Assembly: GCA_954871525.1 (NCBI GenBank)
Contig: OX940861.1
Coordinates: forward strand, 42,421,201-42,485,200
From: Parietaria judaica
Lineage: Eukaryota > Streptophyta > Magnoliopsida > Rosales > Urticaceae
DNA: 64,000 bases
Direction: 5' to 3'
Within the stretch, counting starts at the first letter, position 1. Each line of letters opens with the position of its first letter. The position numbers were made by a program, and so were the translations under genes. The notes under the pieces were generated by a model. It was not told where the DNA came from, ran no database searches, and saw only the letters and a program-made list of their open reading frames with translations. This document shows positions 11,871 to 62,322 of the stretch, one piece after another.

Positions 11871-11931
11871 GTGAGAGAAGCCATCTCTCTCCGATCAACG
11901 ATCAGCCTCTCTTTTCTTTTCAAATATTACA

Positions 11932-33439: not shown

Positions 33440-33615
33440 GTTTCTGTTGACATGTGTCCTTAAACAAGCTGTATTAATTCATTTTGTAAAAGATTATGAC
33501 AAATTGTTGAATAAAAGATGATGTTGATTATGTTAATCTTATTATAGTTTCTGGTAGAGTAAAATAGAATGTTTATTTCCCTAGTTCATAAAGGATGCAA
33601 TTATGTTATTATTAT

Positions 33616-34391
33616 TGTAGAGGGCGATTTTCATCACCCTTTTCCAGTCACAAAGACAATCACCAAATAACAAATAAACAATAGTAAATGATGAATATCT
33701 CTGTTTTATTATATTTTCCGAAATGAGCTCGGTTTTCTTCCGTTGAATAGCTGGACAGATGAAGGATCATGAACATCAATTCTCTCTATTTCCTTAGCCT
33801 TTTCTATTACAAGACTTCTTTCTCTCTTTCCGGGCCTTTTTTCTCTATTTTTCCGAACCCTTCCAAAATGAGGCTTATCTTGCCTTTTATAGAGTTTACA
33901 ATGCCTTTCCCTCGCATCCTTCCCGCCTTTTTCCTTTTAATCATTCACTCTCTGGCGTGATTTGAGGACAGCATGGTCAATTCTTGCTTTATGTCGCTTC
34001 CGAGCAGGCTGCCGTTATGGGTAGGTGCACCTCATTAAATGCGCATCCCGTCAGCCGTCATTCGGCTCTGCAAGCCTCGTCGCCGATGTTCTCATCGAGT
34101 GAGTAGGTCGGCTTCATTAAATGCACGTCTCATCAAGGGTCATTCGACCCTGCACAATCATCATGACGAAATTCCTCCTCGAGTGTGATGGGACGCTTCG
34201 TCGCAACTTGCTCTTGCGTGGCTGCGTCTCCTCGTGGATGAACCTCCTCGGGGGCATTCTTCCTCGGGGATGTTCCTCCTCGGGGATAATCCCCCTCGGG
34301 TGACGAACTTCCTCGCCTCCCCTCATGTCGTTTATGGACCAAACGACACGAGTTGTGTTGAGGATGGATTTGACCAAATCCGACCTTAACA
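33616..34391 (-). repeat. 3' LTR of the young retrotransposon
   Basis: In element orientation it starts TGTTAAGGTCGG (34391) and ends CGCCCTCTACA (33616). It differs from the other LTR at about five sites (for example ACGACACGAG versus AAAACACGAG). Open frames within it, on both strands, recur in the other LTR and are not genes. Confidence 0.92.
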
Positions 34392-34410
34392 GTTAGTCCC
34401 CCATTTTATC
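34392..34410 (-). promoter_or_regulatory. Polypurine tract next to the 3' LTR
   Basis: On the minus strand AAAATGGGGGACTAAC immediately precedes TGTTAAGG, the LTR start. This is the usual position and form of the plus-strand primer in plant gypsy-type elements. Confidence 0.75.
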
Positions 34411-35195
34411 AAGTGTATACACTTGGTAAAATAAAGTATAACTGTCTCGGGGATCGGCCCTAGCCGGCACCAGTTGGTTCCCGGTCGGTGACTACTTCTT
34501 CGGCTCCTCGCGTGGTTATATTGTTAAACCGCTTCCTTTCCTCGCCAGGCCTCCTTTGCTTCCCTCCTTATCGCGAGCTGGGTCATTTGTCCGAGAGGGC
34601 TACCGTGACCTAGACGTCGTTGGCATTTTGTCGAGAACCCTCTCCGCTTACCTAAATTCTGTAAAAATACCGAAATATACGCCTCGAAGGCAAAATGTGT
34701 AAACGTAAACATGCACTTTGTAAATATAAAAATATAACTTTCCCGACGAGACTCCTAGCGATGAAGATTTCTCAACGGCACTGAATCGAGGAGTTTTCGC
34801 GAAGATCCTTGTTAACGATCGAGGAAGCCCAACTTTCTTGCTTCTCCGACTGTTGCTTAGTTCTGGGCCCCACCTCGGTTTGCTTTCCCAAAACTTGTCA
34901 GCCTCGAATCTCTCGCACGTCTCTTCAGCATTGAATGCCAACCTCCTTTCGCATTCGAGTACTTGCAGGGATTTATAACGGGCCCTTTATACGAGCCGTT
35001 GATGAGTTAGCAAGCTTTGAATTTGGGCCGTCAGATCAAGACGCGCCTATCTATTCTTTTCCCTTTTCTATAAATTCGAAGTTCATACCCACTTTCCCAA
35101 ACATTTCTCGTATTTTCAAGAACTCTCTCAAAGTTCGTTGTTACCCCCATTCCCTCATCTCCAAGCTTCTTCCTTTTCCTCCCTAAGACGCGTCG
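34411..35195 (+). other. Non-coding leader region of the antisense ORF block
   Basis: Sequence between the 3' LTR and the antisense ORF. It contains a TATA box (35069) followed by a pyrimidine-rich stretch leading to the ATG at 35196. Small open frames are present without recognisable similarity. Confidence 0.5.
35069..35075 (+). promoter_or_regulatory. TATA box of the antisense ORF
   Basis: TATAAAT within TTTTCTATAAATTCGAAG, 121 bp before the ATG at 35196. It would drive transcription opposite to the element's own genomic RNA. Confidence 0.5.
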
Positions 35196-38100
35196 ATGGC
35201 TCCTTCCCGCTCCGGCCCGATCTTTAAGACCCGAAGCCCCCCTTCCGTGATGACGAAAGAGGGTCTGAAGTTTATCGTTGACAACCATACCGACTCAGAG
35301 CTCTGTTTTGCACATCTCCCTCTTGAGGGTGAATTCGCCGATAAGCCCCAGAGTGACTTCGTCTGCGTATACGAGTCGTTCTTCCGCATCGTTGGTCTCC
35401 GCTTCCCGATGCCGCTCCTTGTCGTGGCGTTTTTCTACGCCTTTGGGGTTCCGATCGATCAGGTGAGCCCCAACACCCTTCGCCTTCTCCTCTGCACACT
35501 CGCCATTGCATGCGAGCAGAAAGTAGAGCTTACGCTCGAGGACTTAATGCGCCTATTCAAGGTCTCCCGTAATCCGAAGAATCTGGGTCGCTTTGCCATC
35601 TCTCATCGCGTCCGGCCGCACATTCTTCTGAACACGCCGTCGAATGAGTCTGGTTGGGAGAATAAGTATTTCTTCGTCCACGTGGACAATTCCAACTTCG
35701 GTCCCCACCATGCTTTCCTACCGAGAGATTTGGTGCTCGAGGGAGTGGACCTCCCTCGATTTAAGCCCGAGGGGAATGAAGAGGCCGAGGCGCGCCACGC
35801 TGCTCTCCTTGACAACCCCAGGCGCGATTGGAGTAGAGACTTTGGGGGTCAGCGGCTCGAGAAGTCTGGGGTTTATCAGCTGGCCCGAATCCACGGGGCG
35901 CCCCCAGATACTCTCCTCGCGGAAGGTTTTCGTCCCGCTCCTGCTCCGGAGGGATCTCCCGTGGAGCGGAAGAAACCAGCTTCAAGGCCGAAGAAGAAAA
36001 CCGAGGATAAAGTCGTTGCCGCTAGGGACAACGCTCCCGTCGATCGGGATCGGGAGGCGCATAGACCGTCAAGGTCTCGGGCAGGATCCGATGCCCCTCG
36101 CTACATGGGGCTCACCCCCCGAGAGGGCGGTTTCTCGAGTAAACGCCCCGTCGAGGATACTTGCGACGAGCGGCGAACGAGAACGAGGACGGGGTCCGTT
36201 GCCCGTTCCTCGCCAGATGCTTCCCGTTCTTCGAGGAGATCTCCTCGAGAAGAAAGCTCTTTGGGAAAGCGCCCCACCGAGGAGGTGTGTGATGCTCCCT
36301 CCGCGAAGAAAGAGAAAGTTCACGACCCGACCCGACCCCTGAGCTCGAAGCTGCTGGTCCGTCTCGAGGGACAGCGGAGGGAGCTTCCGGCACCGCGCCC
36401 GTCGAGGGCACAATGGGGAGGACGGGACTGGCGGCGGACGGGCGTGCGCGCCCCACCGTGAAACCGCGGGAGAGACTGGAGTTTAATGACATCGAGAGTC
36501 TGGTCGTCGCGCCGAATGCTCCTCCTCCACCCCCCTTGGGGGCTGAAAATTCCATTCCTCCTTCCGCTCCGGGGGTCGCGACCCGGTCCTCCCTGTCACC
36601 GCCTCGGGGAATCCCCGACGAAGCGACGCGGGACTTGGTCGCGGCCTCTGTGCCTCCGACTCAATCTTTGGTCAAAGAGACCCATGCTTCGAATGAGGGA
36701 GACACGGGGCCTGTTGGCGATGAAGACGCTCCAGAACAGATCCTCTTCGGGCCCGAGGAGGAACAGTCCGGGGTGCATCCCGAGGCGAATCTCCCTGGCC
36801 CGAAGCTCCTTCCTGGCGCACCTGGCGTCGAGGCCCTCGAGGGCTCAATGGTCCGGCATTCTCCCGATCTTACCGGCGTCTCTGATTCGCAAGTACCTCT
36901 TATCATTCCTTCTAGCGCGTCGCCCAAATCAGCGGATGACTCAGCGCAACTTTCTGCGCCATCCCTTGATCCCGAGGAGGACCCCGAGGAGGCACCTACC
37001 GGGTCGCCACAGGCCCAAGCCAGCTTCCCGGCCTTGCCGCCTCCGGGAGCACTTCCCATGGCCGAAACCTCTCACGAGCTCGTCGAGCCTTCCAGCGATC
37101 CCGTGTGGGGCTTGGAACTTTTTGACCGCGTTACCCGGGGGTAGCCTTGTTGAAAGACGTGATTACCTCCGTGCAGCTATCCACTGCTAGGGTCGAGAGA
37201 GAGAGCAGTGAGTTGTCGGCGGAGCTCACGTTAGTCCGGGGACGGTTTGAGGCTTCCACCCGCGACGGGCGGAAGTCCCAGGAGCAGGCTGAGAAGCTTT
37301 CATCGGAGCTCGACGAAGCCAAGTCTGCCTTGGAGTTGGAAATTTCGTTGCGCCGGGCCGCTGAGGCTGGGCTCAACGAAGCCAAGTCCGCCTTGGAGGT
37401 GGAAAGCTCGTTGCGTCGGGCCGCAGAGGCTGAGCTCAACGAGACCAAGTCCGCTTTGGAGTCGGAAGTCTCGCTGCGCCAGGCCGCTGAGGCCGAATTC
37501 GCGGAACAGCGAAACTCTTGCGCTGTTAAGGAGGCGGGCCTCTCCGATAAGCTCCGGCTTCAGGCTGAACGCCTCGCTCAGATTGGCGAAGCCGTCGGCG
37601 TATCGCCCGATCAGGAAGACCAGCTGGCGTCTCGGGTTGATGCTTTGCTGAGGAAGTTCGTCGAGGACTTAGAGGCCGCGCGAGCCGAGGCAGTTGAGGA
37701 ACGTCACGGCCGAGAGCGCTTGTTCGAGGAGGCCCAAGCCAAGCTGGAGCGCCTCTCAGCGAAGTATGATTTTTTCGATGAATCAATCAACGCCCACCGC
37801 TTGGCTGCCGCGTACCACGCCAACATTGTCTTGGTCGAGTCAATCCCCCTGGCGGCAAAAGCTGAGGGCCTCGATACCCCCTTGCCCTCGTGGCGCGAAA
37901 GCCGCGATAAGCACCGGGCCGGGGTAGAAGAGTTGGACAAGAAATCCGCCCGGAACCCTGATTCTCCACCGCTCTCCCCCTGCAAGCCGACAGCCTCGGA
38001 CTGCCGGGGACTTGAAAGCCTTGCCTCGGAGGGGGCCGTCCTTGGGTCTGCATCGCGCGATGGATCCGGCTCGAGCACCGAGACCCCGACGCTCCCATAG
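35196..38100 (+). pseudogene. Antisense extra ORF of the retrotransposon, gypsy-type transposon domain plus coiled coil
   Basis: Three consecutive long frames (35196-36461, 36413-37144, 37147-38100) read as one protein of about 960 residues with two frame changes, near 36330 and in a G run at about 37136-37141. Residues about 20-105 (SDFVCVYESFFRIVGLRFPM, then VAFFYAFGVPIDQVSPNTLR) resemble the plant 'putative gypsy-type transposon' domain. A long charged low-complexity region (Pro, Ser, Arg, Glu) follows. The third frame is a coiled coil with three tandem units of about 24 residues built on AKSALE-x-E-x-SLRRAAEA. Its C-terminal 180 residues form a helical module that is duplicated downstream. 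No catalytic motif is visible. Proteins of this type are known as antisense extra ORFs of Tat-lineage elements; their function is unknown. Confidence 0.7.
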
Positions 38101-38366
38101 CCCACGGTATAGGACGTTTTCTTGGAGCTTCCCTTTCAATTTCCCTATCTTTTATTGTAAATTCCGCATTCTGTGGCTCTTTCTGTAATCCAAGCATTTA
38201 AGCGAATTATCATATGAAATAAAGAAATCTTTCTTGGGTTACCTTTTCCTTTCGTCATTAAGCTTTTTCCTACTATCGCCCTCGTGTACTTGTCTTTCCC
38301 TTATCTCTTTTCTTGTCGGGCCTCTTTATTGTTTCTTCCGTATCTCCATTCTCTTTTTCCCTTCGC

Positions 38367-39072
38367 AGGCCGGAGGTGGTGCCGTTGCTCTTGCTCCGGC
38401 GAGGACTATATCGGGAAGCGACGATATTCTCCCCAAGACCATAGGGGCTAAGCTCGCTGAGTGTAGGGCGGAGCGTGATGAATATAGACGTCGCATTGCT
38501 ATTGCCGAAGAGTCCCTTCTTGAGGAGCGACAGCGTTATCAGCGGTGTGAGGACACTCTCTCAGCGCAGCTCCGGCAAAAGAATGAGTATTTCAATCGAA
38601 TCGCCGATGCTATAAACCTGTCGCCCGGTCGGGAGGAGCAATTCTCCTTCCATGTCAAGACCGTGCTGAGGAAACTTGTCAAGGACCGGGACGCAGCCAG
38701 GAGCTGGGCGGTAGAGGAATAATTTTCTCGTTTACGCCTCTATCACCGAGCGGTCGACAAGCTGAAGCGCGCCTCCGAGAGATTCGGTGCACTCGAGGGG
38801 ATTGCCAGTGTTCAGCGCCTGCTGGGCGGTGTGCTCTCGAATATCAAGCTCGTCGAGGGATTACCTTCCCGCTCGACCGTTGGTGAGCTTCGAGCAAAAC
38901 TGCCAAGGTGGCGCAAGCTGGAGCAAGGATACTTGGCTGATTTGGCCAAGCTGGAGAGAAAAATCTCCGGTGCTCCGAACTCTCCCCCACTTTCCCCTTG
39001 TCTCCCTCCGGGTGTTGCTAGGGCGCGCTCGCCGGGTTTTGATGTTCTTCCCTTCTCGTCGAGTACGGTATG
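38367..39072 (+). pseudogene. Second copy of the helical module of the antisense ORF
   Basis: After a possible intron ending CCCTTCGCAG at 38369, the frame encodes LAECRAERDEYRRRIAIAEE and NEYFNRIADAINLSPGREEQ. It meets a stop codon at about 38720, then continues in frame through VDKLKRASERFGALEG to NSPPLSPC. This parallels the end of the preceding block: IGEAVGVSPDQEDQ aligns with IADAINLSPGREEQ, VDALLRKFVEDLEAARAEAVEE with VKTVLRKLVKDRDAARSWAVEE, and both end NSPPLSPC. So the module of about 180 residues is duplicated in tandem, and this copy has a premature stop. Confidence 0.65.
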
Positions 39073-39149
39073 AGGTAGCTTATTTTAAATAATTTGTAGT
39101 TTTACCTCCCTTTGGGATTGGTCCCTCACCCTTGGCTCCTTCCTTGCAG

Positions 39150-39350
39150 GCTGACAGTGGAGTCAATGTGAGCCTCGCGGGTACTTCTTCGAGTAAGCCC
39201 CCGGGGCTCCCCGCTGATCATCCTGCTTGCTTAATTGTGGACGACATCCTTCCTCGCGTCTGCGATACCCTCATCGAGGAGTATGCCGACGCAGTCTTGG
39301 GTCAATATCCCATCGATGGTGCCGTCAGGCGAGAGGATCGGTCCCTGTGA
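39150..39350 (+). pseudogene. Possible last exon of the antisense ORF block
   Basis: Follows an acceptor-like CTTCCTTGCAG at 39149. The frame encodes SKPPGLPADHPACLIVDDIL and ends at 39350. An acidic DTLIEEYADAVL helix follows. Splicing to the upstream block is inferred only from the acceptor and an uninterrupted short frame. Confidence 0.4.
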
Positions 39351-39491
39351 GAGTTTATAATAGGTGTTTGCACTTGGGGTGTGGACGATGAATTGTAAAT
39401 GATGATACCCTGTATTTGTATTTTTTTTGAAAAATGAGCCTTTGATGATTTTCTTTTAAGAGTTTGCTCGCAATCTTTGAATTCGTACGGG

Positions 39492-40033
39492 CTTGCTCGT
39501 CGCCCTTAGCCGAAAAATATAATTTTTCTTTGCTCGGCACTCTCGCCGGCTCGGGCTTGCTCGGCGCCCTTAGCCGTAAAATATAATTTTTCTTTGCTCG
39601 GCACTCTCGCCGGCTCGGGCTTGCTCGGCGCCCTTAGCCGTTAAGTTGTATAGATATGTTTTTTTTTTTTGCTCGGCACTCTCGTCGTACCTTTTTTTCC
39701 TTGGCACTCTCGCCGCAATTGTCTCTTGCGGGTATCACTAGGTTTTGTCGGGTACGAGCCGACTAATTCCCAGGACCCCATAGGCACTCTCGCCTTAGTT
39801 GTCTCTTGTGGGTATCGCTAGGTTTCGTCGGGTACGAGCCGACTAGTTCCCAGGATCCCATAGGCACCCTCGCCTTGTATGTTTCTTCGGCATTCTCGCC
39901 AGCCCGGGCTTGCTCGGCGCCATTAGCCGTATATGGATCTCGACATGTTTTGCCGGACCGGGTTTGCTCGGCACCCTTAGCCGTATATATGGATCTCGAC
40001 ATGTTTTGCCGGACCGGGCTTGCTCGGCACCCT
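39492..40033. repeat. Three-family minisatellite field inside the retrotransposon
   Basis: Three tandem sets in a row: a 64-bp unit (39492-39555, 39556-39619 and a partial third), an 80-bp unit (39720-39799, 39800-39879) and a 54-56 bp unit (39923-39976, 39977-40032). All share short words such as TTGCTCGGC[AG]CCCTTAGCCG and CACTCTCGCC. Tandem repeats in this position are known in Tat/Ogre-type elements and can seed satellite DNA. Confidence 0.85.
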
Positions 40034-40301
40034 TAGCCGTTTTTTTTTATCATGAATATTGCGAAGATACTTTCCCTCCTATTTGGTACTATCGCTGAGC
40101 AGAGTTGCATACACACTTTGCCAACTTTATAAATTTGCTCGCTCCTTAATAAACAAAAGAAAAACATACACACATAGACATTAAAAGAAAAAACAAACCC
40201 AAACAAACCTCTACCACCTATTATAATCTACAAACGGTTAAAAAGGTAGCCATCCCAATCCTCTCCTCGCGCGCGAGCAGCGTATGAGCCTTACTCCGGG
40301 C

Positions 40302-41125
40302 TCACTCCTCCTCGACGATCGAGCAGGCTGACGACGCGATTTTCTCCATAGAGCTCCAGCTGGGGCGACCGAAGTTACATTCCGGGCAGAGGTCAGTGTA
40401 CCACGTGGTACCGAGGATGTAGCACGACCTGCAAAAACCGCAAGCACGCCCATTTCGGCGTCGCCCAAAACACGGCGGGCGGACGGAGTCTCCTGCTTGA
40501 GTCCTCGTTGGCTTCTCGTAGACCAGGACATTTTTATCGCATCGCCTGCAGAACTCCGTGTCGAGCAGACGACCGCGTGGGGCAGGCGCCTGCTGCTCGG
40601 GATAGTCGGCTGGATTCCCTGCCGCGAGCAGTGGGGGAAGGTCCTCAAGTTTGACCCTGGTTCCCTCCACGAGCCTGGGAAATAACCCGTTGACCCTCAG
40701 GAATTTTATCCCGTGCTCGATGGTGGACAAGTTGCTGACCACGTCGTCTAAGGTGATTCGGTGGCAGCGTGGCATGCATAGCTTTACGAGCGTCGGGTTG
40801 CCCCGCATGATCGTCTCCACCGCGGTGTTGGTGACCTCGTCGCACTCGTACAGAGGCAAAGTCTCCATCTTCCCTTGAGACCTCCTCGCCAGCCTCAGGA
40901 GATCTCGTCTGTGATCCGCTTGCTCAACGGGCTGTAGGTGCTGAGGTTGCGCCACAGAAAGTTGTTTCCTCTAACCTCGTCGCGTAACGAGGTGCACACC
41001 ATCTCCACCGCGAGGAGTTCCTCGGGCATAAGATACGGCAGGACCAGTTCCAATGCGGGGTGTGGTTCGCCTGGGATCCTCGACTCCTCCTGATCCCGTT
41101 GGCCCTCCGTGGTGTCCTCCTCCAT
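40302..41125 (-). pseudogene. Captured SKIP14-like F-box gene, one frame break
   Basis: Two minus-strand frames make one gene. The first (from ATG at 41125) encodes PHPALELVLPYLMPEELLAV then VCTSLRDEV and FLWRN, an F-box at residues about 22-65. It runs out of frame at about 40897. The second frame (to 40302) continues with ETLPLYECDEVTNTAVETI and RGNPTLVKLCMPRCHRITLD, a leucine-rich segment, then a Cys-rich tail with C-x2-C, CGFCRSC and C-x2-C pairs. This order, and the PLxKRITDEI...GNPxLxKL wording, matches plant SKIP14-type F-box proteins, SCF ubiquitin-ligase receptors. The frame break is a 2-nt shift inside GACGAGATCTCCTG. It lies in sense orientation just after the 5' LTR and primer site, where gag would be. 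It is therefore inferred to be a captured host transcript, perhaps partly functional. Confidence 0.7.
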
Positions 41126-41789
41126 TGGACATGGCTCGCTGCTTTCCGGCCATTCCTCGTGCTTCTAGAAGTCCGCCATTTCGTGATCATCTCCTCCTCG
41201 TGCCCCCGTTGCGTCCTCCTTGGGCCATCCCCAGCCTTCATCCACGATCATCTCCGACTCGTCTGTATAGCTTTGGCAAGCGCCATCTTCTCCTCGTGTG
41301 TTTTCTCGGCCTGTATCGCGAAAATACTAGTAAATGCTGGTTTCGGAATAAGAAAAGAACTTCTAGTTTCTGGGTGGAGCAATTGGTACTTATCTGGGAG
41401 TTAATCGAGTTGGTTTTTATTTCCGCGAACTCGTTTCTTCTGATCCTCTCCAAACTTCCCAATTTATAACCGTTGATTGCTTCGCACGCAACTCTTCGTA
41501 TTCTCTGTTTCGTTGTCACCTCACAACGCTTCGGAAGTTGCTCCGATTCATTGATACGCGTGCACTCCTTTTTCTGATTAACCGTCCATCAATCGGCCTC
41601 TCTTAAATGCAAGGAGTCCGTACGTCTCCCCTTCTTACGTCATTCCTGCCCCTTGAGCTGCCTCCTTATGCTCTGCTCGCTATTTTTGCGCGCTTAGCCA
41701 TCACCTCGAGCACGTTGCCGACGACGGCGTCGTTTGATAACGTCATGCTCCTCCAAATTCCTGGCTGTGAGTTAGAAAGAAAACAAAGC
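41126..41789 (-). other. Leader between primer-binding site and captured F-box gene
   Basis: No gag-like frame is present. On the minus strand a TATA-like GGTTATAAATTGGG lies at about 41458-41471, roughly 340 bp before the F-box ATG, which may be a promoter carried with the captured gene. Short open frames show no similarity. Confidence 0.45.
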
Positions 41790-41807
41790 CCCTCGGTCGG
41801 CGCCAAA
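41790..41807 (-). promoter_or_regulatory. tRNA primer-binding site
   Basis: On the minus strand TGGCGCCGACCGAGGGGC lies two bases inside the LTR end CCCTCTACA. A TGGCGCCG start is the usual primer-binding site of plant Tat-type gypsy elements. It fixes the element's sense strand as minus. Confidence 0.8.
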
Positions 41808-41808
41808 C

Positions 41809-42584
41809 TGTAGAGGGCGATTTTCACCACCCTTTTCCAGTCACAAAGACAATCACCAAATAACAAATAAACAATAGTAAATGATGAATATCTCTGTTTT
41901 ATTATATTTTCCGAAATGAGCTCGGTTTTCTTCCGTTGAATAGCTGGACAGATGAAGGATCATGAACATCAATTCTCTCTATTTCCTTAGCCTTTTCTAT
42001 TACAAGACTTCTTTCTCTCTTTCCGGGCCTTTTTTCTCTATTTTTCCGAACCCTTCCAAAATGAGGCTTATCTTGCCTTTTATAGAGTTTACAATGCCTT
42101 TCCCTCGCATCCTTCCCGCCTTTTTCCTTTTAATCATTCACTCTCTGGCGTGATTTGAGGGCAGCATGGTCAATTCTTGCTTTATGTCGCTTCCGAGCAG
42201 GCTGCCGTTATGGGTAGGTGCACCTCATTAAATGCGCATCCCGTCAGCCGTCATTCGGCTCTGCAAGCCTCGTCGCCGATGTTCTCATCGAGTGAGTAGG
42301 TCGGCTTCATTAAATGCACGTCTCATCAAGGGTCATTCGACCCTGCACAATCATCATGACGAAATTCCTCCTCGAGTGTGATGGGACGCTTCGTCGCAAC
42401 TTGCTCTCGCGTGGCTGCGTCTCCTCGTGGATGAACCTCCTCGGGGGCATTCTTCCTCGGGGATGTTCCTCCTCGGGGATAATCCCCCTCGGGTGACGAA
42501 CTTCCTCGCCTCCCCTCATGTCGTTTATGGACCAAAAAACACGAGTTGTGTTGAGGATGGATTTGACCAAATCCGACCTTAACA
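41809..42584 (-). repeat. 5' LTR of the young retrotransposon
   Basis: In element orientation it runs from TGTTAAGGTCGG (42584) to CGCCCTCTACA (41809), then the primer-binding site. About 99.4% identical to the other LTR by eye. Confidence 0.92.
42078..42084 (-). promoter_or_regulatory. LTR TATA box (minus strand)
   Basis: Minus-strand CTCTATAAAAGGC, a near-consensus plant TATA box, about 500 bp into the 5' LTR. The same sequence is in the 3' LTR (about 33885-33891). Confidence 0.65.
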
Positions 42585-44466
42585 ATTATCACAACCGAGT
42601 CAATGTGAGGAAGAATTAATAATCATAATAAATGAACTGAAAATGTCTGTGACCTGGTTAACTGGGTGGGAACTCATTAATCGTATAAGGTCATTAATGT
42701 GACTAAGTTATCATATAAGACCGTCACTGATAACTTGGAGTTGAGTCACTAGTAGATGATCAAATGGATATTCGATCTAAGTCCTGAGTGATCTTGAGTC
42801 CGAGCTGTTGGCTTGATTGATCTTTGATTTAACCGTTAAAGAGCACATTATTATTGTTGTTCCCAACACTATTATTTTGGGGACATGATAGTCAGCAGTA
42901 AGGGTACATTGGTCATAGATATGGGCATCACACAACTCTCTTCAGAGTCAAGATGATTCCCTTGGTTGTCGGTGGTGAGAAGTGAGAGGTACCCGTGCAC
43001 AACTTATGAATCGAAACTATAAGTGGGTTACTCATGATATTACTGACCGAGTCAAGGAGGAAAATGCATTGAGAGGCAAAACGGTAAAAACTGCATGCTC
43101 ATGTGTAGATCATCACGTGAAAGATCAATAACCCGAATTTGATTGTATAAATGGACATCCTGTTGTAATAAAAGGAATAATATATACTGTATCACTAAAG
43201 AGTGAAGCCATGGGTTTATAGTGGAATTACACCGAGGTTTGACGAACATCCTAGCAGTTCGTTGGAGCTTAAGTGATACGAGTCCATGGCCCCCAGGATA
43301 GCTTCGTAACGGATGATACGTACGTGATAGAAACATTTTGAGATGTTTAATCATTTGGCAAGATTTATAAAACTGAAGTCTGTGTTAGACATCAGATAGT
43401 TTTATCAGTACCGTGGCAAAAGTACCATATCTTGGTAACTGAAATTAACTGACAAAATAAAGTAGAATTTGGATTTTCTGTCAACATAAAAGTTGTTGGA
43501 AATTAAATTCTAAGAAACTTTGCTTTTGGAGCCGAGTCATTTCGACGTACGGTTTGTGATTAAGAGAATTTCCAAGTTTATGATCGTTTCGGTAAACTAT
43601 GAAATTAAATCACATGTCACGAATTTAAATGATGGTGTGGCACGATGACATTTGAATCTATGATATTGAGATCAATAGATATTAATATAATTTAATTATT
43701 TGGATTTAATTATTAATATCTTTATTAATAATTAATAGATTTATATTAATAATAAATGATATATATTTATATATATTATAATGTATAAATCGAATAAAGC
43801 CTATGAATGTGCAGTATGGCATTCGAATGGATTGTCTGGTCTTTTCATATTTGCGGCATAAGTATCAAATATTTTGGTATTTAGGAAAAACCCTAAAATC
43901 AATTTAATCCATTGGATCAGTTAGGATTTAATATCAACCGTTGGATTAAGATAATTAATTTTTACCTTAACCCTAATTCGAAATTGATAGCTTCGTGACC
44001 AAGCTTAGGGTTTTCGAATTCGGCCTAATTAATTGTATCCGTTGGACCGGTTTAAGATTTAATCTTTACCGTCGGATTGGAAATTAATTAATTATATATA
44101 ATATATAATTTTTGAAATAATGATATGGATAAAATCGAATTAGGGCTTTTACCAAGTCTTAGAGTATTTGATTTTATCCTAAATCAATTTGGTCCATTAG
44201 ATCGGATTATGATTTATCTCATCCGTTGGATCTGGATAATTGATTTTTGAATTATATATATATAATTCGAATTTAAGATAAGTGGATAAGATTAGATTTT
44301 TATTTTACCAAGTCTTTCTTATTTAATTAAATCCTTAATTAATTGTATCCCTTGGATTTAGATAAGATTGAATCTAGACCATTGGATTGAAATAATTAAT
44401 TATATTTAATAATTGAATTCGAATTTTAGGGGAGGGAATTTCTCCAATTTCGTTACAGTCCGAGCC

Positions 44467-47205: not shown

Positions 47206-48571
47206 ATGGCTCTCGCCGCCAACCTCACCCTCCTGGCCATTCTCGCCGCTCTGGCCTCCTCCGCCTCCGCCTACGGCGGCGGCTGGAGCAACGCCCACGC
47301 CACCTTCTACGGCGGCAGCGACGCCTCCGGCACCATGGGTACTTTTCCCTCGCACTCACAAGTCACAATGCGCCATTTTTCTCATATAGTTCGTTGCATT
47401 TGAGGGGTTGAGTTTCTGATTCGGTATTTGTGTGTGATTTTTCAGGAGGGGCGTGCGGGTACGGGAACCTGTACAGCCAGGGGTACGGGACGAACACGGC
47501 GGCGCTGAGCACGGCGCTGTTCAACAACGGGCTGAGCTGCGGGTCGTGCTACGAGATCCGGTGCGCCAGCGACCCGAAGTGGTGCCTGCCCGGGTCCATC
47601 GTGGTCACGGCCACCAACTTCTGCCCTCCCAACAACGCCCTCCCCAACAACAATGGAGGCTGGTGCAACCCTCCCCAGCAGCACTTCGACCTCTCCCAGC
47701 CCGTCTTCCAGCACATTGCCCAGTACCGGGCTGGCATCGTCCCCGTTGCCTACCGCAGGTCCGCCCTCTCCCTCTGCTCTGTTTCTCTCTTATCGTTGCT
47801 TCAAATGCTTTAAAAAAATATTCTGAAATGGGTTACTGAGTTTGAGCTAATGATTTATGATGCTCGATCTTAAGATTATTTTTGGACGGTGCTCGTTTGA
47901 ACTAAGTGGGTTTTAGTATAACCCGGGTCTAACAAACCCGAATACCGAGAATCTTGTTTTGGGTAAAAAACAAAAGCGTAATGGACTCTGTAATAAAAAT
48001 TCAATTCCGAGAATCTTGTTTTGGGTAACAAAAAAAGGGTAATGGACTCTGTTTCACCCTTATGGTTCCGGGTCTAAAAATTCCAATACCGAGAATCTTG
48101 TTTCTAGTAACAAAAAAATGGGTTATGGACTCGGTTTCACCCTTATGGTTCCAGGTCTAAAAATTCCAATACGGAGATGTTTTGGGTAACAAAAAATGGG
48201 GAATAAAACCGGTGTCACTCTTATGGAAAGGAAACATTCTGATGCTTAAATTTCCCTTTTGCAGGGTGGCTTGCCGGAGGAGGGGAGGAATCAGGTTCAC
48301 GATCAACGGGCACTCGTACTTCAACCTGGTGCTGATCACCAACGTGGGCGGCGCGGGCGACGTGCACTCAGTGTTCGTGAAAGGGTCCCGCACCGGGTGG
48401 CAGGCCATGTCCCGCAACTGGGGACAGAACTGGCAGAGCAACTCCTACCTCAACGGCCAGAGCCTCTCCTTCAAGGTTGTCACCAGCGATGGCCGCACCG
48501 TCGTCTCCAACAACGCCGCCCCAGCCCACTGGTCCTTCGGCCAGACCTTCGCCGGCGCCCAGTTCCGCTGA
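47206..48571 (+). CDS. EXPA: Alpha-expansin (three exons)
   Basis: Exons 47206-47338, 47446-47758 and 48265-48571 with GT-AG introns give 250 residues, the usual alpha-expansin length. Residues 1-22 are a hydrophobic signal peptide. Residues about 26-150 form the six-stranded barrel domain with the expected cysteines ([25 protein letters not shown]) and the HFD motif at 124-126. Residues about 160-245 form the grass-pollen-allergen-like C-terminal domain with the conserved tryptophans ([14 protein letters not shown]). Alpha-expansins are secreted and loosen the cell wall non-enzymatically at acidic pH by disrupting cellulose-xyloglucan contacts. Both intron positions (after GTMG and within PVAYRR) are the classical EXPA positions. 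Exons are strongly GC-rich against AT-rich surroundings. All key residues are present, so it looks functional; the paralogue number cannot be given. Confidence 0.95.
47941..48240 (+). repeat. Minisatellite in expansin intron 2
   Basis: About four direct copies of a unit of roughly 62-87 bp built on ATACCGAGAATCTTGTTTTG, GGTAACAAAAAA and ATGGACTC[TG]GTTTCACCC. Starts are near 47941, 48002, 48081 and 48168. The last copy runs almost to the splice acceptor at 48264. Confidence 0.8.
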
Positions 48572-54800: not shown

Positions 54801-54934
54801 TGGCAGAACCGTAAAACAAACCGAAAATCAAAGCCCAAAAAAAAAAAAAAAAAAAAAAATGAAAGAAGATAAAACACAGTTCTAAATTCACTCACAGCAG
54901 AGCAACCCTCGAAGAAGAAGAGAAGAAGAAGAAG

Positions 54935-55822
54935 ATGACGACGCTGATGAAACCGCCATGGCCAATCTTCCCATCGTCCTCGCAGCTGAGCGGCAAATCG
55001 GAGAGACCCAGAAGCCAATCCCTGCAAATCCCCCAAGCCAATCCCTCGTCCGACTCCGGCCTCCTCTTCCGGCAGAAGATCCTGTACCTGGAGCACCACA
55101 TCGGCGTCGACTCCCGCAAGGCCCTCGCCCTCAACCCCGCCTTCCGCGCCGCGCCTCTCTCCGCCGTCAAGTCCGTCGCCTCCTGCCTCCGCTCCATGGG
55201 CCTCGACCGCGCCGCCGCCGCGCGCGTGCTCGACATGAACCCCTCGCTCCTCACCGCCGACCCCCACGCCGACCTCTACCCCGTCCTCGACTTTCTCCTC
55301 CACGACGCCGCCATCCCCTTCCCCGACGTGCGCCGCGCCCTCGTCCGCTGCCCGCGCCTCCTCGTCTGCCCCGTCGACGCCCAGCTGCGCCGCAACCTCG
55401 ACTTCCTCGCTGGCCTCGGCTTCCGCGGCCTCACCTGCCACACCGTGCTGCTCCTCGTCTCCAGCGTCGAGCGCACGCTCCAGCCCAAGCTGGAGTTCCT
55501 CCGGGGGCGCCTCGGGCTCCCGGCCAAGGCTGTGGACCAAATGGTGGTCCGCTCGCCGGGGATCCTCATGCTCAGCATCGAGAAGAACCTTGCGCCGAAG
55601 CTGGACTACTTCCTGGTGGAGATGCGCGGGGAAGTGGCGGAATTGAGGCGGTTTCCGCAGTACTTCTCGTTCAGCTTGGAGCGGAAGATCATGCCGCGGC
55701 ACCGCGCGCTGGAGGCGGCCGGGCTGTCTGTGCCGCTGGCCGAGATGCTGAAGATCAGCGACGGCGAGTTTGAAGCTCGCCTTCTGGAGACGAGGCTGAG
55801 GAGGCTCGACGAGAGAGAGTAG
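54935..55822 (+). CDS. mTERF-family protein, organelle-targeted
   Basis: An intronless 295-residue frame. The first 40 or so residues are Ser/Pro/Arg-rich with few acids, like a plastid or mitochondrial transit peptide. From about residue 60 it shows repeated helical mTERF units whose diagnostic proline motifs read NPAF (67), NPSLL (102), CPRLL (139), SPGILM (208) and FPQYF (240), spaced about 35 residues. mTERF proteins bind organellar nucleic acid and act in transcription termination, RNA processing or splicing in chloroplasts and mitochondria. The short single-exon form resembles small plant mTERFs. Coding GC is very high, so a 301-residue frame also opens on the opposite strand as a shadow. 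No frame damage is seen. Which organelle and which paralogue cannot be told from this sequence. Confidence 0.9.
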   Translation: MTTLMKPPWPIFPSSSQLSGKSERPRSQSLQIPQANPSSDSGLLFRQKILYLEHHIGVDSRKALALNPAFRAAPLSAVKSVASCLRSMGLDRAAAARVLDMNPSLLTADPHADLYPVLDFLLHDAAIPFPDVRRALVRCPRLLVCPVDAQLRRNLDFLAGLGFRGLTCHTVLLLVSSVERTLQPKLEFLRGRLGLPAKAVDQMVVRSPGILMLSIEKNLAPKLDYFLVEMRGEVAELRRFPQYFSFSLERKIMPRHRALEAAGLSVPLAEMLKISDGEFEARLLETRLRRLDERE

Positions 55823-56079: not shown

Positions 56080-56580
56080 AAGGACCAAGAAGACCAGAGT
56101 TTCTTCGTCACTCCAGTGTCGTTTAACCAAGAAGACCTGGGTTTCTACTTTCTATCTTCCTCAATCAGGTGTCGTTTGACCAAGAAGACGAGGGTTTCTT
56201 TCTTCCTCACTCAGATGTCGTTTGACCAGGAAGACCAGAGTTTCTTGGTGTCGTTTGACCAAAAAGGCCAGAGTTTCTTCCTCACTCAGGTGTCGTTTGA
56301 CCAAGAAGACTAGAGTTTCTTCCTCACTCAGGTGCGTTTGACCAAGAAGACCAATTCTTCCTCAATCAGGTGTCGTTTGACCAAGAAGACCAGAGTTTCT
56401 TCCTCACTCAAGTGTCTTTCGACCAAGAAGACCAATTCTTCATCACTCAGGTGTCGTTTGACCAAGAAGACCGTTGTTTCTTCCTCACTCAGGTGTCTTT
56501 CGACCAAGAAGACCAATTCTTCCTCAGGTGTCGTTTGACCAAGAAGACCAGTGTTGCTTCCTCACTCACTGTCGTTTTCT
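56080..56580 (+). repeat. Minisatellite of about 40 bp, 12 units
   Basis: Twelve copies of GACCAAGAAGACCAGAGTTT with linking TCCTCACTCAGGTGTCGTTT. Variants include GACCAATTC and TCTTTC forms that alternate in the last six units. Open frames run through it in more than one phase (peptide SFDQEDQSFFLTQV), a consequence of repeat composition. I do not treat it as a gene. Confidence 0.88.
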
Positions 56581-56916: not shown

Positions 56917-57001
56917 CTATTTTCTAAGGGTGTAACCGGAGCAGATATCTGGTTTTTTAGACTATCCGGTATCCGGATCCGGAAAGTCAAAAATCACTAT
57001 A

Positions 57002-57372
57002 TGTGATGATGTGGCTTTAAATAAGTGGGTCTCATTTGTAGGTGCTTATAAAGTCTAGCATTTTGGTTTTATGAAGAGGGAGAGAGAGTGAGAATAGTGG
57101 GTGAGAACTTCTTAAGAGAAAATCATAGAGAGAAAAGAGAAAGTCTTGAGTGCTTGTAATCTTTGTAATCTCGGATTGATTTGATTAGTGAAACCGCTCT
57201 CCGTGCAGGAAGTAGGACATTTGATTTGGTTCGAACCTAGGTAAATTCTCTTGTCTCCATCTTTTACATTTCCGTCGATTGATTGCCTGGGATTTGATCC
57301 ACGGAGGCTATATATACATGCATGCTAGTATACTATCCGTAATCCGCAGGTATCCGACCCCGAAACATCACA
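57002..57372 (+). repeat. 5' LTR of the copia element
   Basis: 371 bp, TGTGATG to CATCACA. About 20-25 substitutions separate it from the 3' LTR, so the insertion is much older than the one at 33616-42584. Confidence 0.9.
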
Positions 57373-57378
57373 ACATAT

Positions 57379-57389
57379 TGGTATCAGAG
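57379..57389 (+). promoter_or_regulatory. copia primer-binding site
   Basis: TGGTATCAGAG, complementary to the 3' end of the plant initiator methionine tRNA, six bases after the 5' LTR. Confidence 0.85.
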
Positions 57390-57487
57390 AAAAGTTGGGT
57401 TTGAAATTTGGGGATTTTGTGTTGAGGATTCCTGCGCACGCCAAGTGTTTGATAATTGTTTCCTTGGAGCTTAGTGGTTGTTTTATG

Positions 57488-58339
57488 ATGGCGTCGACTT
57501 CAAAAGTTGATATTGAGAAGTTTAATGGCTCAAATGACTTCGGGTTGTGGAAAGTGAAGATGTTGGCACATCTTGGGAATATGGGTCTTGGTAAGGCTCT
57601 TGTTGGTGCGGATAAACTTCCGGCGATGTGGGACGCGGTGAAGAAAGAGGAGGTGTTGGAAAGGGCTTTCAATACTTTGATTCTTAGTCTCGGTGATAAG
57701 GTGTTGCGGGAGGTTATACGGTGCACGACGGCGGCCGAGATATGGTTGAAACTAGAATCACTTTACATGACGAAGACTTTGTCGAGCCGGTTGTTTCTCA
57801 AGGCGCGATTTTTCATATTCAAAATGGCGGAAGGAAAGGATTTAATGGAGCAACTCGACGAGTTTAACAAGTTGATCGTTGATTTGGAAAACATTGACGT
57901 GAAGTACGATGACGAAGATCAAGCTTTGGTTTTGCTTTACTCTTTGCCGAGGTCGTGCGAGCACATGGTTGGCATTCTTCAACATGGAAGAGAAGAAATT
58001 ACTCTTGACGAAGTTGTTGGAGCTTTGAAGTCAAAGGAATACAAACGACGGATATAAATGAATAGTACTAGCGGAGATAGCTTGGTTGTGGCTCGGGGTA
58101 GATCCGACAAGAAAGACTTCAAACAAAAGAAAAAGATACGGTCAAAGTCTCGAGGTTCTAAGAAAGTCTTCAAGTGTTACTCTTGTCATGAGGAAGGACA
58201 CATGAAGAAGAATTGCCCGAATCGAGGAGGCCGGACGACCGAAAGAAGAGATGGAGAGGTGGCGGTTGTTCAAGAAGATGTCGACGGATACGAGAGCGCC
58301 GATGTTCTCGTTGTCTCCACCGTTCACTCCAACAAACGA
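57488..58339 (+). pseudogene. copia gag with zinc knuckle
   Basis: From the ATG at 57488 (begins MASTSKVDIEKFNGSN) the frame shows the plant copia gag pattern: FNGSNDFGLWKVKM, the later LESLYMTKTLSSRLFLKARF and VLLYSLP. A stop codon at 58055-58057 interrupts it; the same frame continues with a basic segment and the zinc knuckle C-Y-S-C-HEEGH-MKKN-C (CX2CX4HX4C) at about 58173-58215. A second stop at 58340 precedes the protease. In an intact element this would be one frame with pol. Confidence 0.85.
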
Positions 58340-58345
58340 TGAATT

Positions 58346-61300
58346 ATGGACTATGGAGGCTCATTTCATATGACACCGAATGAAAGTTGGCTTGAGAGCT
58401 ACAAGAAAGTCTCGTTAGGCGACATGACTATCGGGAACGGCTATCCATGTGAGGTGGTCGGAATCGGTATGGTGCGGATTAAGGCGCACGATGGAATGGA
58501 GTGGATTTTTACGGAGGTACGACATGTCCCGGAGTTAAAAACAAACCTTATTTCACTTGGATATTTGGACGAACACGGTTACTATTGGAAATGTGAAAAT
58601 AATGTCTTGATGATCACGAAGGGTTCTCTAGTTGTGTTGAAGGGATTTAGAGAGCGTAACATCTACATTCTTCAAGGTACAACCGTGGTCTGTGACGTTG
58701 CGGCGGTTATGGAGCCGCGAGAGACATCTTTGGCGAGCCTTTGGCACAAGAGGTTGAGTCACGTGAGTGATAAAGGTTTGAAGGAGTTGAGCAACCAAGG
58801 TTTATTTGGGGTTGAAAAACTTGGTGACTTGGAGTTTTGTGAACATTGCATCAACGGCAAGACCACGAGAGTGAAGTTTACACGGTCCGTGAAAGTGACA
58901 CGGGAGACGTTGAGCTATGTGCACTCGGATTTGTGGGGGCCGTCGAGGACGGGAACTCTAGGGGGAGGCCGGTATTTCATCACGCTCATCGACGATTGTT
59001 CTCGGAAAGTTTGGGTCTACATCTTGAAGCATAAAGATGAAACTTTTGGAAAGTTCAAAGAATGGAAGAAGATGGTAGAAAAACAAACGGGGAGAAAAAT
59101 CAAGAAGCTTCGAACGGACAATGGTTTGGAGTAGGGGTGAAAATTTTGTCACCGTTTCCCGGTTTCGTCCCGGTTCCGGTACCGGTTCCGGACCGGTTTA
59201 AGAAAAAAATAGGGAAATTGTGTTTAAAACCGGGAACCGGTACTTCCCGGTTCCCGATTTTCGGAACCGTGAACCGGAACCGGGAACCAGAACCGTTTTT
59301 CCCGATTTTTGGTACCGGTTCCGGTTTATGTATTTTTATGTCATTTTTTAAATATTTTATGTCGTTTTGGTTTAATATGTCATTTTGTTTTCTTTATATG
59401 TCGTTTTTTACCATTAAAAAAATTAGGGTTTATGCCTCCTTCCTCATTCCTCTCTCTCGCTTGCGACTCTTTATCTCCACCTTCTCTTTGCTTTTGGCTT
59501 TTCCTCGTCTAGGTTTGATTTTCTTCTGTGAAATATCTTTTATGGTTTATTCTATGTCAATTGCACCCCTTCGAAAGGCTTGATTTCCTCGCTTTCTTTT
59601 TTGATTTCGGTTTCTTTTCCTTCTCTCAAGTTTTTCTTTTTTTCTTCGAATGATTCCAGCCCTCTTATGTGATTTCGGCGTTGCTTTCCTCCCGACTCCA
59701 GAGAAGTCGAACGCTTTACTCCCGGTTTTAGTCACGAATTTTTTCACGATTCTCTCACGAATTTTTCTCGGTCCCGGTTCTGGTTCCGGTTTTCAAAAAA
59801 AGGGGAAATATACAATTGGAACCGGGAACCGGTACCAAGAAAAAAAATCCCGAATTTTCGAGATAGGTACCAGAAAATAAAAATATACCGGTTCCCGGTT
59901 CCGCTTTCACCCCTAGTTTGGAGTATTTAGGTGATGAGTTCAACCGTTTCATCAAGGATGAAGGAATGGTTAGGCACAAGACCGTTTGGAAAACCCCACA
60001 ACAAAATGGTCTCGCGGAGCGGATGAATCAGACACTTCTTAAGAGGGTGCGATGTATGTTATTCGAGGCCGGCTTACCGAAGAGGTTTGAGGGGGAAGCC
60101 GTGAATACAACGGCTTACTTGATAAACCGATGTCCATCGGTGGCGTTGAATTGCAAGACACAGAAAGAAGTGTGGAATGGTTCTCAACCGAAGCTCGACA
60201 ACTTGAAGGTATTTGGTTGCGTGGCGTACATGCACCAAAGAGAGGGAAAACTTGATCCACGAGCAAAGACGTGTATGTTTATCGAATACCCCGAGGGCGT
60301 AAAGGGTTGGAAACTTTGGTATAAAGATGGCGAAGCATCAAAATGTGTCATTAACCGGGATGTTGTCTTTAGAGAGACCGACTACTACATGACAATGGCG
60401 ACTCAATAGGCTAAGGATAGCGTGAGGTTAGCTAAGGAAAGAGCCAAAATTGAGGTGGAGCTATTGGGGAGATGTAGTGACGAGATGGATGATAAAGGCG
60501 AGGCTAGTGGTAGTGGTCACTTAAAAGAAATTGAAGAGGAAGGCGGTGAAGTTCTGGATAAAAGCCTAGACTCGTATCAATTAGCAAGAGACCGGTGTAG
60601 AAGAGAAACCCGAGCTCCAAAAAAGTATGGTTACTCCGATTTAGTTGCTTATGCAATGGTTTCCGCGGAGGAGTTAGAAGACTCAAAACCGAGATCGTAT
60701 CAGGAAGCGGTGATGGGCAAAGATAAAAAGCTATGGAAGTGTGCAATAAACGAAGAAATGACATCGCTTGACAAGAATGAGACATGGGTACTTGTGGACA
60801 AGCCTAAAATCAACGGGTTGTTGGTTGTATATGGGTTTTCAAGTGGAAGGAAGGCATTGTTGGGTTTGAGAAGCCGAAGTGTAAGGCGAGATTGGTGGCT
60901 AAAGGGTTCACACAAAGAGAAGGGGTCGACTTCAACGAAATCAATTCCCCCGTGGTGAAGCATACATCTATTCGGGTTTCGCTTGCTATAGTCAATAAAT
61001 ATGACTTGGTGCTTGAGCAAATGAATGTAGAGACCACGTTTCTTCATGGGAATCTTAATGAGAGAATCTTAATGGCTCAATCGGAAGGATTTATTAAGGT
61101 TGAAGATGAAGATAAAGTGTGCCTTCTTAGGAAATCTCTTTATGGCTTGAAACAATCCCCGAGACAATGGTACTTGAGATTTGATGAGTTCATGGTGCGA
61201 AATGGGTTCTCACGAAGCAACTTTGATAGTTGTGTTTATGTCAAGCGGGTTGATAGTTGTGAAATATTCTTGTTGCTATATGTTGATGACATGTTGATAG

Positions 61301-62259
61301 CGTCAAAGAACAAGAATGAAGTCGACAACGTGAAACGGCTTTTGGGTAGTGAGTTTGAAATGAAGGACATGAGACCAGCCAAGAAAATATTAGGGATGGA
61401 GATCACGCGGCATAGGAGACACGGTGTCTTATTTTTGTCGCAATGTGATTATCTTCGGAAAGTGGTGGCTAAGTTCGGGATGTCGGAGGCAAAGGCGGTT
61501 CAAACACCTTTGGCGGCTCATTTCAAACTTTCCGCGAGAATATCGCCGAAGACCAAGGAGGATAAGGCGAGTATGGAGTGGGTTCCCTAAGCAAGTGCTG
61601 TTGGGAGTCTTATATATGCCATGGTGTGCACACGACCGGATTTAGCGTATGCGGCTAGCCTTGTGAGCCGGTTTATGGCCAACCCAGGAAAAGAACATTG
61701 GGAGGCAACGAAGTGGGTCCTTCGATTTATCAAAGGGACTTTGGATGTCGGTTTACTTTATAGGCGGGTGAATGAAGATCAAGCGAAATTAAGAGGCTTT
61801 GTGGATGCGGACTTTGTGGGTGATTTGGACAAGAGACAGTCATTGACCGGGTATGTATTTACTTTATTTGGTTGTGCGGTGAGTTGGAAAGCACAATTGC
61901 AACCGGTGGTAGCGCTTTCTACGACGGAGGCCTAATACATCGCCGCGACGGAAGGCGTGAATGAATCTCTTTGGTTAAAGGGATTGATCGGCGAGTTCAG
62001 GATTGCACAAAATGAGGCGGAGTTGCTTTATGACAATCAAAGCGCGATATACTTAACCAAGAACCAAATGTTCCATGAGCGGACGAAGCACATCGACATA
62101 AAGCTACACTTCATTCGAGATGTGGTCGCGGAGGGGTCCGTAGTTGTTAAGAAAGTTCACACGGATGATAATCCGGCGGATATGGCTACGAAGGCGGTGA
62201 CGGGGATCAAGTTTCGACATTGTTGTGACTTGATCAACGTCCCAAGGTTGAGCAACTAG
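58346..62259 (+). pseudogene. copia pol: protease, integrase, reverse transcriptase, RNase H
   Basis: The protease motif reads MDYGGSFHMTP, where the catalytic D-(S/T)-G is changed to D-Y-G. Integrase follows: the HHCC zinc domain (WHKRLSHVSDKG ... CEHCINGK), then HSDLWGP and LRTDNG with the first two catalytic aspartates. A 784-bp hAT-type element breaks it at 59132; the integrase resumes at 59924 with PQQNGLAERMN carrying the catalytic glutamate. Reverse transcriptase has FLHGNLNERILM and the YVDDMLIAS active site. RNase H follows (VDADFVGDLDKRQS, ALSTTEA, TKHIDIKLHFIRD). Stops lie at about 60407, 61588 and 61933, with a frameshift near 60800-60890. Not functional. Confidence 0.88.
59132..59915. 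mobile_element. hAT-type MITE inside copia integrase, exact 8-bp TSD
   Basis: Ends TAGGGGTGAAAATTTTG and CCGCTTTCACCCCTA form an 11-bp perfect inverted repeat (TAGGGGTGAAA / TTTCACCCCTA with a short gap in alignment). The 8-bp duplication GTTTGGAG is exact (59124-59131 and 59916-59923). Both subterminal zones are packed with CCGGTTCC/GGAACCGG words. Element plus duplication is 792 bp, a multiple of three. Its 784-bp interior is non-coding. Confidence 0.9.
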
Positions 62260-62322
62260 AGGAGAATTCGGAGAGCGGTTTGACGACGGTTCTCAATTCT
62301 TCTTAAAGCCAAGGTGGAGATT

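What the first reader, a model, noticed from the sequence alone, without database searches (positions are those of the whole stretch)
33616..42584. Very young non-autonomous LTR retrotransposon carrying a host F-box gene in place of gag
LTRs (776 bp each) differ at about five sites and the ATTAT duplication is exact, so it moved recently although it has no gag or pol. Primer site, polypurine tract and LTR TATA box all give minus-strand sense; the SKIP14-like F-box gene is in that same sense right after the primer site. Captured host genes in such recent plant retroelements are uncommon. If several copies share the insert, the F-box segment is being amplified as part of a family.
Basis: partly seen in the sequence, partly recalled or inferred. 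Interest (0 to 1): 0.82.

Follow-up and report, generated by a model that had tools for sequence, protein, structure and literature searches.

The report
Jumping gene keeping a host F-box
A plant jumping gene without copying machinery of its own carries, in that place, an intron-less relative of a plant F-box (protein-degradation tag) gene, and related copies have kept this gene's protein sequence over a long time, which suggests that it helps the element rather than being dead cargo.

Summary
33616-42584 is an LTR retrotransposon read on the minus strand: 776-bp LTRs with 5 differences, exact ATTAT duplication, primer site, polypurine tract, no gag or pol found. It is one of many copies (497 first-look candidates for the F-box segment, 40 scored). 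The F-box ORF descends from a spliced SKIP14-type host mRNA: two host relatives have an intron exactly where the element reads straight through. Three things change the picture. (1) The capture is old; only this insertion is recent: 34-42% amino-acid identity to the host gene, dS up to 0.70 between subfamilies. (2) The F-box ORF is under purifying selection among elements in which no gag-pol was found: dN/dS about 0.3-0.5, against about 1 in shifted frames. Sister elements with nearly the same ends carry Ty3/gypsy gag-pol; the two read in full have neither F-box nor antisense gene. The family looks like a split system. This copy's own F-box and antisense frames are broken, as are most F-box frames in its closest subfamily. 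The F-box protein's role is inferred, not shown.

The parts
33611..33615 (.). target-site duplication ATTAT, left
42585..42589 (.). target-site duplication ATTAT, right
41809..42584 (-). 5' LTR in element sense; TATA box about 42075-42085
33616..34391 (-). 3' LTR in element sense
41788..41805 (-). primer binding site TGGCGCCGACCGAGGGGC, 3 nt after the LTR; 6 of the 8 other copies shown begin TGGCGCCCACCG
34397..34407 (-). polypurine tract AAAATGGGGGA, followed by CTAAC and the 3' LTR
41720..41808 (-). leader shared with gag-pol sister elements L011 and L016; similarity ends about where their gag reading starts
40302..41302 (-). SKIP14-like F-box ORF (333 codons in intact copies); here interrupted by one stop and one frameshift (about 40880-40904)
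39488..40041 (.). tandem-repeat block (units of 64, 80 and 56 bp, 2.2-2.5 copies each); 39875-40040 also present in L011 and L016
35196..39073 (+). antisense gene (open blocks about 35196-38100 and 38370-39073, exon limits inferred by eye), weakly PF04195-like; frame broken in this copy, 974-codon open block in copy L034
34392..34571 (-). 3' end region shared with gag-pol sister elements L011 and L016

Best explanation
This is one copy of a non-autonomous member of a Ty3-gypsy family of Tat/Retand type. Long ago a spliced mRNA of a SKIP14-type F-box gene was taken up during reverse transcription and came to occupy the gag-pol position (inferred from the missing intron and the shared leader). 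Its RNA is made from the LTR, then packaged, reverse-transcribed and integrated by Gag-Pol from sister elements with matching LTRs, primer site and 3' end (inferred from shared sequence). The F-box protein, and the antisense gene product, have been kept under purifying selection among F-box-bearing elements (shown), so they most likely help the element: the F-box protein probably recruits SKP1-cullin ligase to remove a host factor that restricts the family (inferred; target unknown, anti-silencing being the first guess). gag-pol on one side, F-box plus antisense gene on the other, sit on separate elements that complement each other (seen in the copies sampled; the complementation is inferred).
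For: Family: 497 first-look candidates for the F-box segment; the 40 scored all at 94% or more. 0 of 21 fetched F-box copies carry sister gag-pol between their LTRs as far as fetched (up to 10 kb; L034's matches lie at and beyond its ends). Host origin: SKIP14 query finds a host gene at 62% and a paralogue; both have an intron at NLKLVK|LSVPG, the element none; element against host 42% over 111 aa, 34% over 227. PF12937 matched by 11 of 11 intact copies. Selection: pooled pN/pS 0.41 in frame, 0.89 and 1.00 in shifted frames, 210 pairs of 21 copies; free omega against omega 1: 2 delta lnL 55 for 11 intact copies, 0.4 and 0.0 in shifted frames; 229 for 23 copies, dS up to 0.70. Antisense gene: lowest-frame pN/pS 0.12-0.42 in 9 of 14 windows, 0.50-0.76 in the other 5. 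Partner: L011 has gag, protease, RT, RNase H, RVT_3 and integrase domains, L016 a gag domain and further long sense ORFs like L011's, under LTRs 95-97% identical to the window's; these LTRs nest among F-box-element LTRs. No gag hit within 12 kb of an F-box hit, best 40 by best 40 places.
Against: No expression, protein or interaction data. This copy is broken, and in the 7 LTR-chosen copies of its subfamily only 1 has an intact F-box frame. Selection may be past: old constraint stays visible after copies die (a caution made in PMC2410132). PF12937 scores 23.8 bits against a cut-off of 24.3 in the member shown. The leader holds 5-7 upstream ATGs in the four copies examined, so simple scanning to the F-box start is doubtful. 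PF04195 is far below its cut-off in the antisense protein. The structure prediction failed (mean pLDDT 30.7). An autonomous carrier of the F-box cannot be excluded: only best-scoring copies were seen. How selection acts on a gene that works in trans is unexplained.
Confidence: 0.7

Rival explanations
1. Passive hitchhiker: a gag-pol element lost its genes, picked up F-box DNA as neutral cargo and is moved by helpers; the coding signal is only a residue of the host gene.
For: The window copy is broken, and 10 of 21 copies lack an intact F-box frame. Mobilisation would need only the shared ends (inference).
Against: Constraint is seen between element subfamilies (dN/dS 0.31-0.46 in ten chosen pairs, dS 0.17-0.70) and in the correct frame only. 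Intact 333-codon frames in 11 of 21 copies; 12 of 14 further divergent loci, which I chose from rows without stops, reach the usual C-terminus.
Confidence: 0.14
2. The F-box (and antisense) genes are maintained on a larger autonomous Retand-type element not sampled here; the copies seen are its deletion derivatives, so the selection is not on non-autonomous elements.
For: In published Retand elements the antisense gene and gag-pol are on one element (PMC11963269, passages read). Only best-scoring copies were fetched.
Against: 0 of 21 F-box copies hold sister gag-pol inside; no gag hit within 12 kb of an F-box hit in the two best-40 lists; L011 and L016 leaders run straight towards gag without an F-box; several F-box subfamilies share the gag-less layout.
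Confidence: 0.14
3. Ancestrally complete element (sense F-box upstream of gag, antisense gene downstream of pol) that lost gag-pol by deletion, the F-box not having replaced it; the F-box may still be useful.
For: Some Tat elements carry an extra ORF upstream of gag (recalled). Tandem repeats and antisense gene lie where a deleted gag-pol would leave them.
Against: No gag-pol remnant found in the F-box copies; the shared leader ends just about at the sister gag start.
Confidence: 0.2

Closest known systems
Retand lineage of Tat-clade Ty3/gypsy retrotransposons (PMC11963269, passages read; PMC7264820, parts 1 and 2 of 3 read)
   Same: Antisense ORF near the 3' LTR with a PF04195-like N-terminus (weak), repeats in that region, some members non-autonomous; sister element L011 has Ty3/gypsy gag-pol with a second RNase H-like domain (RVT_3), which I recall as a Tat mark.
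   Different: No gag-pol; an F-box ORF in its place; the sister gag-pol elements sampled lack the antisense gene. 'F-box' occurs 0 times in that paper's main text.
Cereba/Quinta autonomous and non-autonomous pair of wheat (PMC11302176, abstract read)
   Same: Partners share LTRs, primer site and polypurine tract; the non-autonomous partner is proposed to supply a protein.
   Different: Quinta supplies Gag, an element gene; here the retained sense gene comes from a host F-box gene.
Non-autonomous Athila elements (PMC2410132, abstract and one section read)
   Same: Elements without pol whose remaining ORFs are under purifying selection.
   Different: Those ORFs are gag and env of the element itself.
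Bs1 of maize and other gene-capturing LTR elements (PMC7264820, PMC13317346, passages read)
   Same: Host gene pieces carried by an LTR element; the review cites many captured sequences in rice and sorghum, those of rice mostly under negative selection.
   Different: Bs1 carries fragments, and transduced genes are said to be in one or a few copies (PMC7264820); here an F-box/LRR/Cys unit was kept through several subfamilies of a gag-less family with several hundred candidate copies.
AlkB-carrying gypsy elements of Phalaenopsis (PMC9289625, abstract and one section read)
   Same: A host-type domain fixed in a Ty3/gypsy lineage, proposed to counter host control.
   Different: Those are 25-kb elements found by their RT. 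That screen used RT as the marker and would miss an element like this; F-box is not among the domains named in the section read.
Polerovirus P0 (search listing only)
   Same: F-box-like protein used against host RNA silencing: a functional analogy for the guess made here.
   Different: No homology tested; the target is unknown here.

Membership tests
Non-autonomous LTR retrotransposon | two LTRs, primer site, polypurine tract, target duplication | tested here: met
Non-autonomous LTR retrotransposon | no gag or pol | tested here: met
   0 of 15 translated gag-pol pieces of L011 and L016 match the window element by tblastn at E 1e-5; no gag/pol family in 7 ORFs
Non-autonomous LTR retrotransposon | moved by proteins of a related element | not testable with these tools
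   inferred from shared ends with gag-pol elements L011 and L016
Retand lineage (Tat clade) | RT phylogeny | not tested
   the element has no RT; the sisters' RT was not placed on a tree
Retand lineage (Tat clade) | antisense TRP28 (PF04195) gene before the 3' LTR | tested here: inconclusive
   antisense gene present and constrained; PF04195 matched over positions 2-68 of 69 in the first 200 aa of the L034 protein, but E 0.029 and 15 bits against cut-off 26.2; no match with the window's own frame
Retand lineage (Tat clade) | tandem repeats between coding region and 3' LTR (about half of published elements; arrays of 3 or more copies counted) | tested here: inconclusive
   three arrays at 39488-40041 with 2.2-2.5 copies each; the 3.0-copy array at 37306-37493 is coding
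LARD (large retrotransposon derivative) | long internal region without coding genes (definition recalled) | tested here: not met
   two constrained genes in the internal region of the family
SKIP14-type F-box protein | F-box domain | tested here: met
   PF12937 in 11 of 11 intact copies, best E 1.7e-5; the member shown scores 23.8 bits, just below the curated cut-off 24.3
SKIP14-type F-box protein | similarity through LRR and Cys-rich C-terminus to host SKIP14 | tested here: met
   34% over 227 aa, E 1.5e-34, L015 against the host peptide; C-terminal Cys invariant in 11 copies except one change at each of two positions
SKIP14-type F-box protein | binds SKP1 | not testable with these tools
   needs the bench

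The most novel reading that the evidence does not exclude
A bipartite retrotransposon: one element type carries gag-pol, the other a host-derived F-box gene plus an antisense gene, sharing ends and each depending on or profiting from the other over tens of millions of years, with the F-box protein acting as a silencing-escape factor that turns the host's ubiquitin ligase against a TE-restricting protein.
Probability: 0.25. Interest if true: 0.9.

Novelty: new variant of a known kind. Interest (0 to 1): 0.77.

Why it matters
Gene transduction by plant LTR elements is described as a matter of one or a few copies (PMC7264820). Here a captured regulatory gene was kept under selection in a large family that cannot copy itself, next to sister elements that can. 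That makes an open question testable: what does a 'parasite of a parasite' contribute, and can a retrotransposon be split over two elements as multipartite viruses are? Surveys that find elements by their reverse transcriptase cannot see such families.

Tried and rejected
Protein database search with the window's 217-aa frame: 365 candidates, none at E 0.001; since SKIP14 relatives should be common in plants, I suspect that few plant proteins are held there. Two viral-contig scans: no relative. AlphaFold2 on the 11-row F-box alignment: mean pLDDT 30.7, not used and not searched. Chance similarity to an F-box rejected. 'Recent capture' rejected. Search bias as the cause of the higher F-box conservation was considered: 14 copies were chosen by F-box match, but between subfamilies dS is 0.12-0.18 while dN is 0.06-0.07. 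The LTR pair printed for L033 is not a pair: a foreign LTR sits inside that element. Direction element-to-host rejected: both host genes have the intron. Literature: 'SKIP14' with 'retrotransposon' gave one unrelated paper; in the titles and abstract beginnings listed, and in what I read of papers, I saw no F-box-bearing plant LTR element. That is a limited library and no proof of absence.

Full report
Observation. LTRs 33616-34391 and 41809-42584 differ at 5 of 776 sites without gaps, two of them adjacent, and ATTAT flanks both ends. K2P 0.0065 gives 0.25-0.50 million years at 1.3e-8 or 6.5e-9 per site and year (rates recalled), the second lowest of the 19 LTR pairs that remain when L033 and L038 are set aside; L034 has 4 of 778. 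Primer site, polypurine tract and TATA box give minus-strand sense.

What is inside. In sense order: 5' LTR, primer site, leader of about 500 nt, SKIP14-like ORF, tandem repeats, a long gene on the opposite strand, polypurine tract, 3' LTR. The F-box frame of this copy is broken (one stop, one frameshift), and the antisense frames are broken too. Its N-terminal domain in copy L034 aligns over the PF04195 model but far below the cut-off. In 300-base windows over 19 copies its lowest-frame pN/pS is 0.12-0.42 in 9 of 14 windows and 0.50-0.76 in the other five, which include the places where the frame changes and the apparent introns; picking the lowest of three frames flatters these values.

A family. 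First-look candidates in the 538.7-Mb genome: LTR 2634, F-box segment 497, gag of the sister element 875; only 40 of each were scored. Of 8 LTR pairs fetched (window not counted), 6 carry F-box and antisense gene, L015 with part of the latter missing, and 2 (L011, L016) carry gag-pol. Among the LTR neighbourhoods L001-L008, two are the window's, two belong to pairs already fetched, L004, L005 and L006 are 3' ends of gag-pol elements with pol running into the 3' end region and no antisense gene, and L007 has no known flank. For 6 of 40 gag hits that have a scored LTR downstream, gag start to 3' LTR is 5.9-6.2 kb, as in L011 (one of the six), which leaves no room for the antisense gene of about 4 kb. 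None of 40 gag hits lies within 12 kb of any of 40 F-box hits; both are best-scoring lists. The two kinds of element share LTRs at 95-97%, about 90 nt after the 5' LTR, part of the repeats and about 180 nt before the 3' LTR, and the LTRs of L011 and L016 nest among F-box-element LTRs. One F-box element, L028, is only 4485 bp: LTR, F-box, repeats, LTR, with a CTAAC duplication and 8 of 791 LTR differences; either it moved without the antisense gene or lost it after insertion.

Origin of the F-box. A query recalled from Arabidopsis SKIP14 found one host gene at 62% (E 2.4e-58), a paralogue at 47%, and 148 further rows at 28-37%, 9 of them with a stop inside. I take the 148 as element copies; of the 14 fetched from that list, two were checked upstream and have the LTR and primer site, the others were not checked. 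Both host genes are split by an intron at the same place (first gene AAG|GTTAGT ... TTGCAG|TTAAGC after NLKLVK), and the element reads NPTLVKLCLP without a break. A spliced mRNA is thus the likely source. Identity to the host is 42% over 111 aa around the F-box and 34% over 227 aa, so the capture is old. The match to the first host gene starts at about residue 78; the part before it has no match there beyond chance.

Selection. Of 21 F-box copies read, 11 have an intact 333-codon frame: 1 of 7 in the LTR-chosen set (window included), 10 of 14 in the F-box-chosen set; the latter choice favours good F-box matches. In five copies (L032, L034-L037) LTRs and the two large antisense pieces are at 83-87% to the window, the F-box segment at 94% (a part LTR match of L032 is at 81%). 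The reason is amino-acid constraint: pooled pN/pS 0.41 over 210 pairs in frame, 0.89 and 1.00 in the shifted frames; by group 0.37-0.49, and 0.47 within the window's own group. With the 11 intact copies a model with free omega beats omega 1 by 27.6 lnL units; in shifted frames, after dropping codons with stops, by 0.2 and 0.003. With 23 copies, including 12 of 14 further loci that I chose from rows without stops, it wins by 114.7 units; dN/dS is 0.31-0.46 in ten chosen pairs and dS reaches 0.70, which at the rates above is some 27-54 million years (my arithmetic). One of the 23 lacks the starting Met. Codon-model omega values were not printed.

How it probably works. Shown: mobile ends, no gag-pol found, sister gag-pol elements with the same ends, host origin through mRNA, long constraint on two genes. 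Inferred: the sisters' Gag-Pol moves the F-box elements; template switching made the capture; the F-box protein acts through SKP1-cullin ligase on a host restriction factor; the antisense gene is expressed from its own promoter as reported for Grande (PMC7264820). Not understood: how selection sees a protein that could serve all family members alike; preference for the RNA that encodes it, or co-packaging, are possible. The leader's 5-7 upstream ATGs in the four copies examined call for splicing or reinitiation.

Comparison. Antisense TRP28 genes, tandem repeats and non-autonomous forms are described for Retand elements (PMC11963269, passages). Constrained ORFs in elements without pol are known from Athila (PMC2410132) and a protein-giving non-autonomous partner from wheat Quinta (PMC11302176, abstract). 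A host-type enzyme kept in a gypsy lineage is known from orchids (PMC9289625), and captured genes under negative selection are reported for rice (cited in PMC13317346, passages). What I did not find in print, within the searches, is a host-derived F-box gene kept under selection in an element without gag-pol. I rate it a new variant of a known kind. After re-checking, I lowered confidence in the best explanation from 0.72 to 0.70, because the L028 case is ambiguous and L016's pol was not scanned by Pfam, and raised two rivals by 0.01.

Noticed in passing
G000 contigs C1, C3, C5, C6, C8, C9, C19: All 120 scored places of LTR, gag and F-box DNA, and the rows of the SKIP14 search, lie on 7 of the 87 contigs, whose lengths sum to about 315 of 538.7 Mb. 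Possibly a subgenome or haplotype pattern, or the way the search works; the control search did not complete.
   Followed up: partly
G000:C19:20811936-20821516 (L044, L051): Two nearly identical divergent F-box copies about 8.4 kb apart in the same sense, which might be a tandem element sharing an LTR.
   Followed up: partly
L034 (element ends at 402 and 9673 in sense): This F-box copy seems to sit inside another, more distant Ty3/gypsy element: gag-pol-like matches of 37-62% lie at and beyond both ends.
   Followed up: no
window 56999-62688: A Ty1/copia-like element (by eye, from the frames) with direct repeats of about 370 bp at 91%; its integrase region is interrupted at about 59131-59867 by other sequence.
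   Followed up: no
window 47412-48568: Expansin-like gene in two exons (by eye), host genic DNA near the element.
   Followed up: no
window 54863-55819: GC-rich single-exon frame that looks like an mTERF-family gene (by eye).
   Followed up: no
window 11875-12894: Open frame resembling an ordinary F-box protein, apparently not of the SKIP14 type (by eye).
   Followed up: no
window 56083-56577: Short tandem array of diverged copies (74-81%) just before the copia-like element.
   Followed up: no
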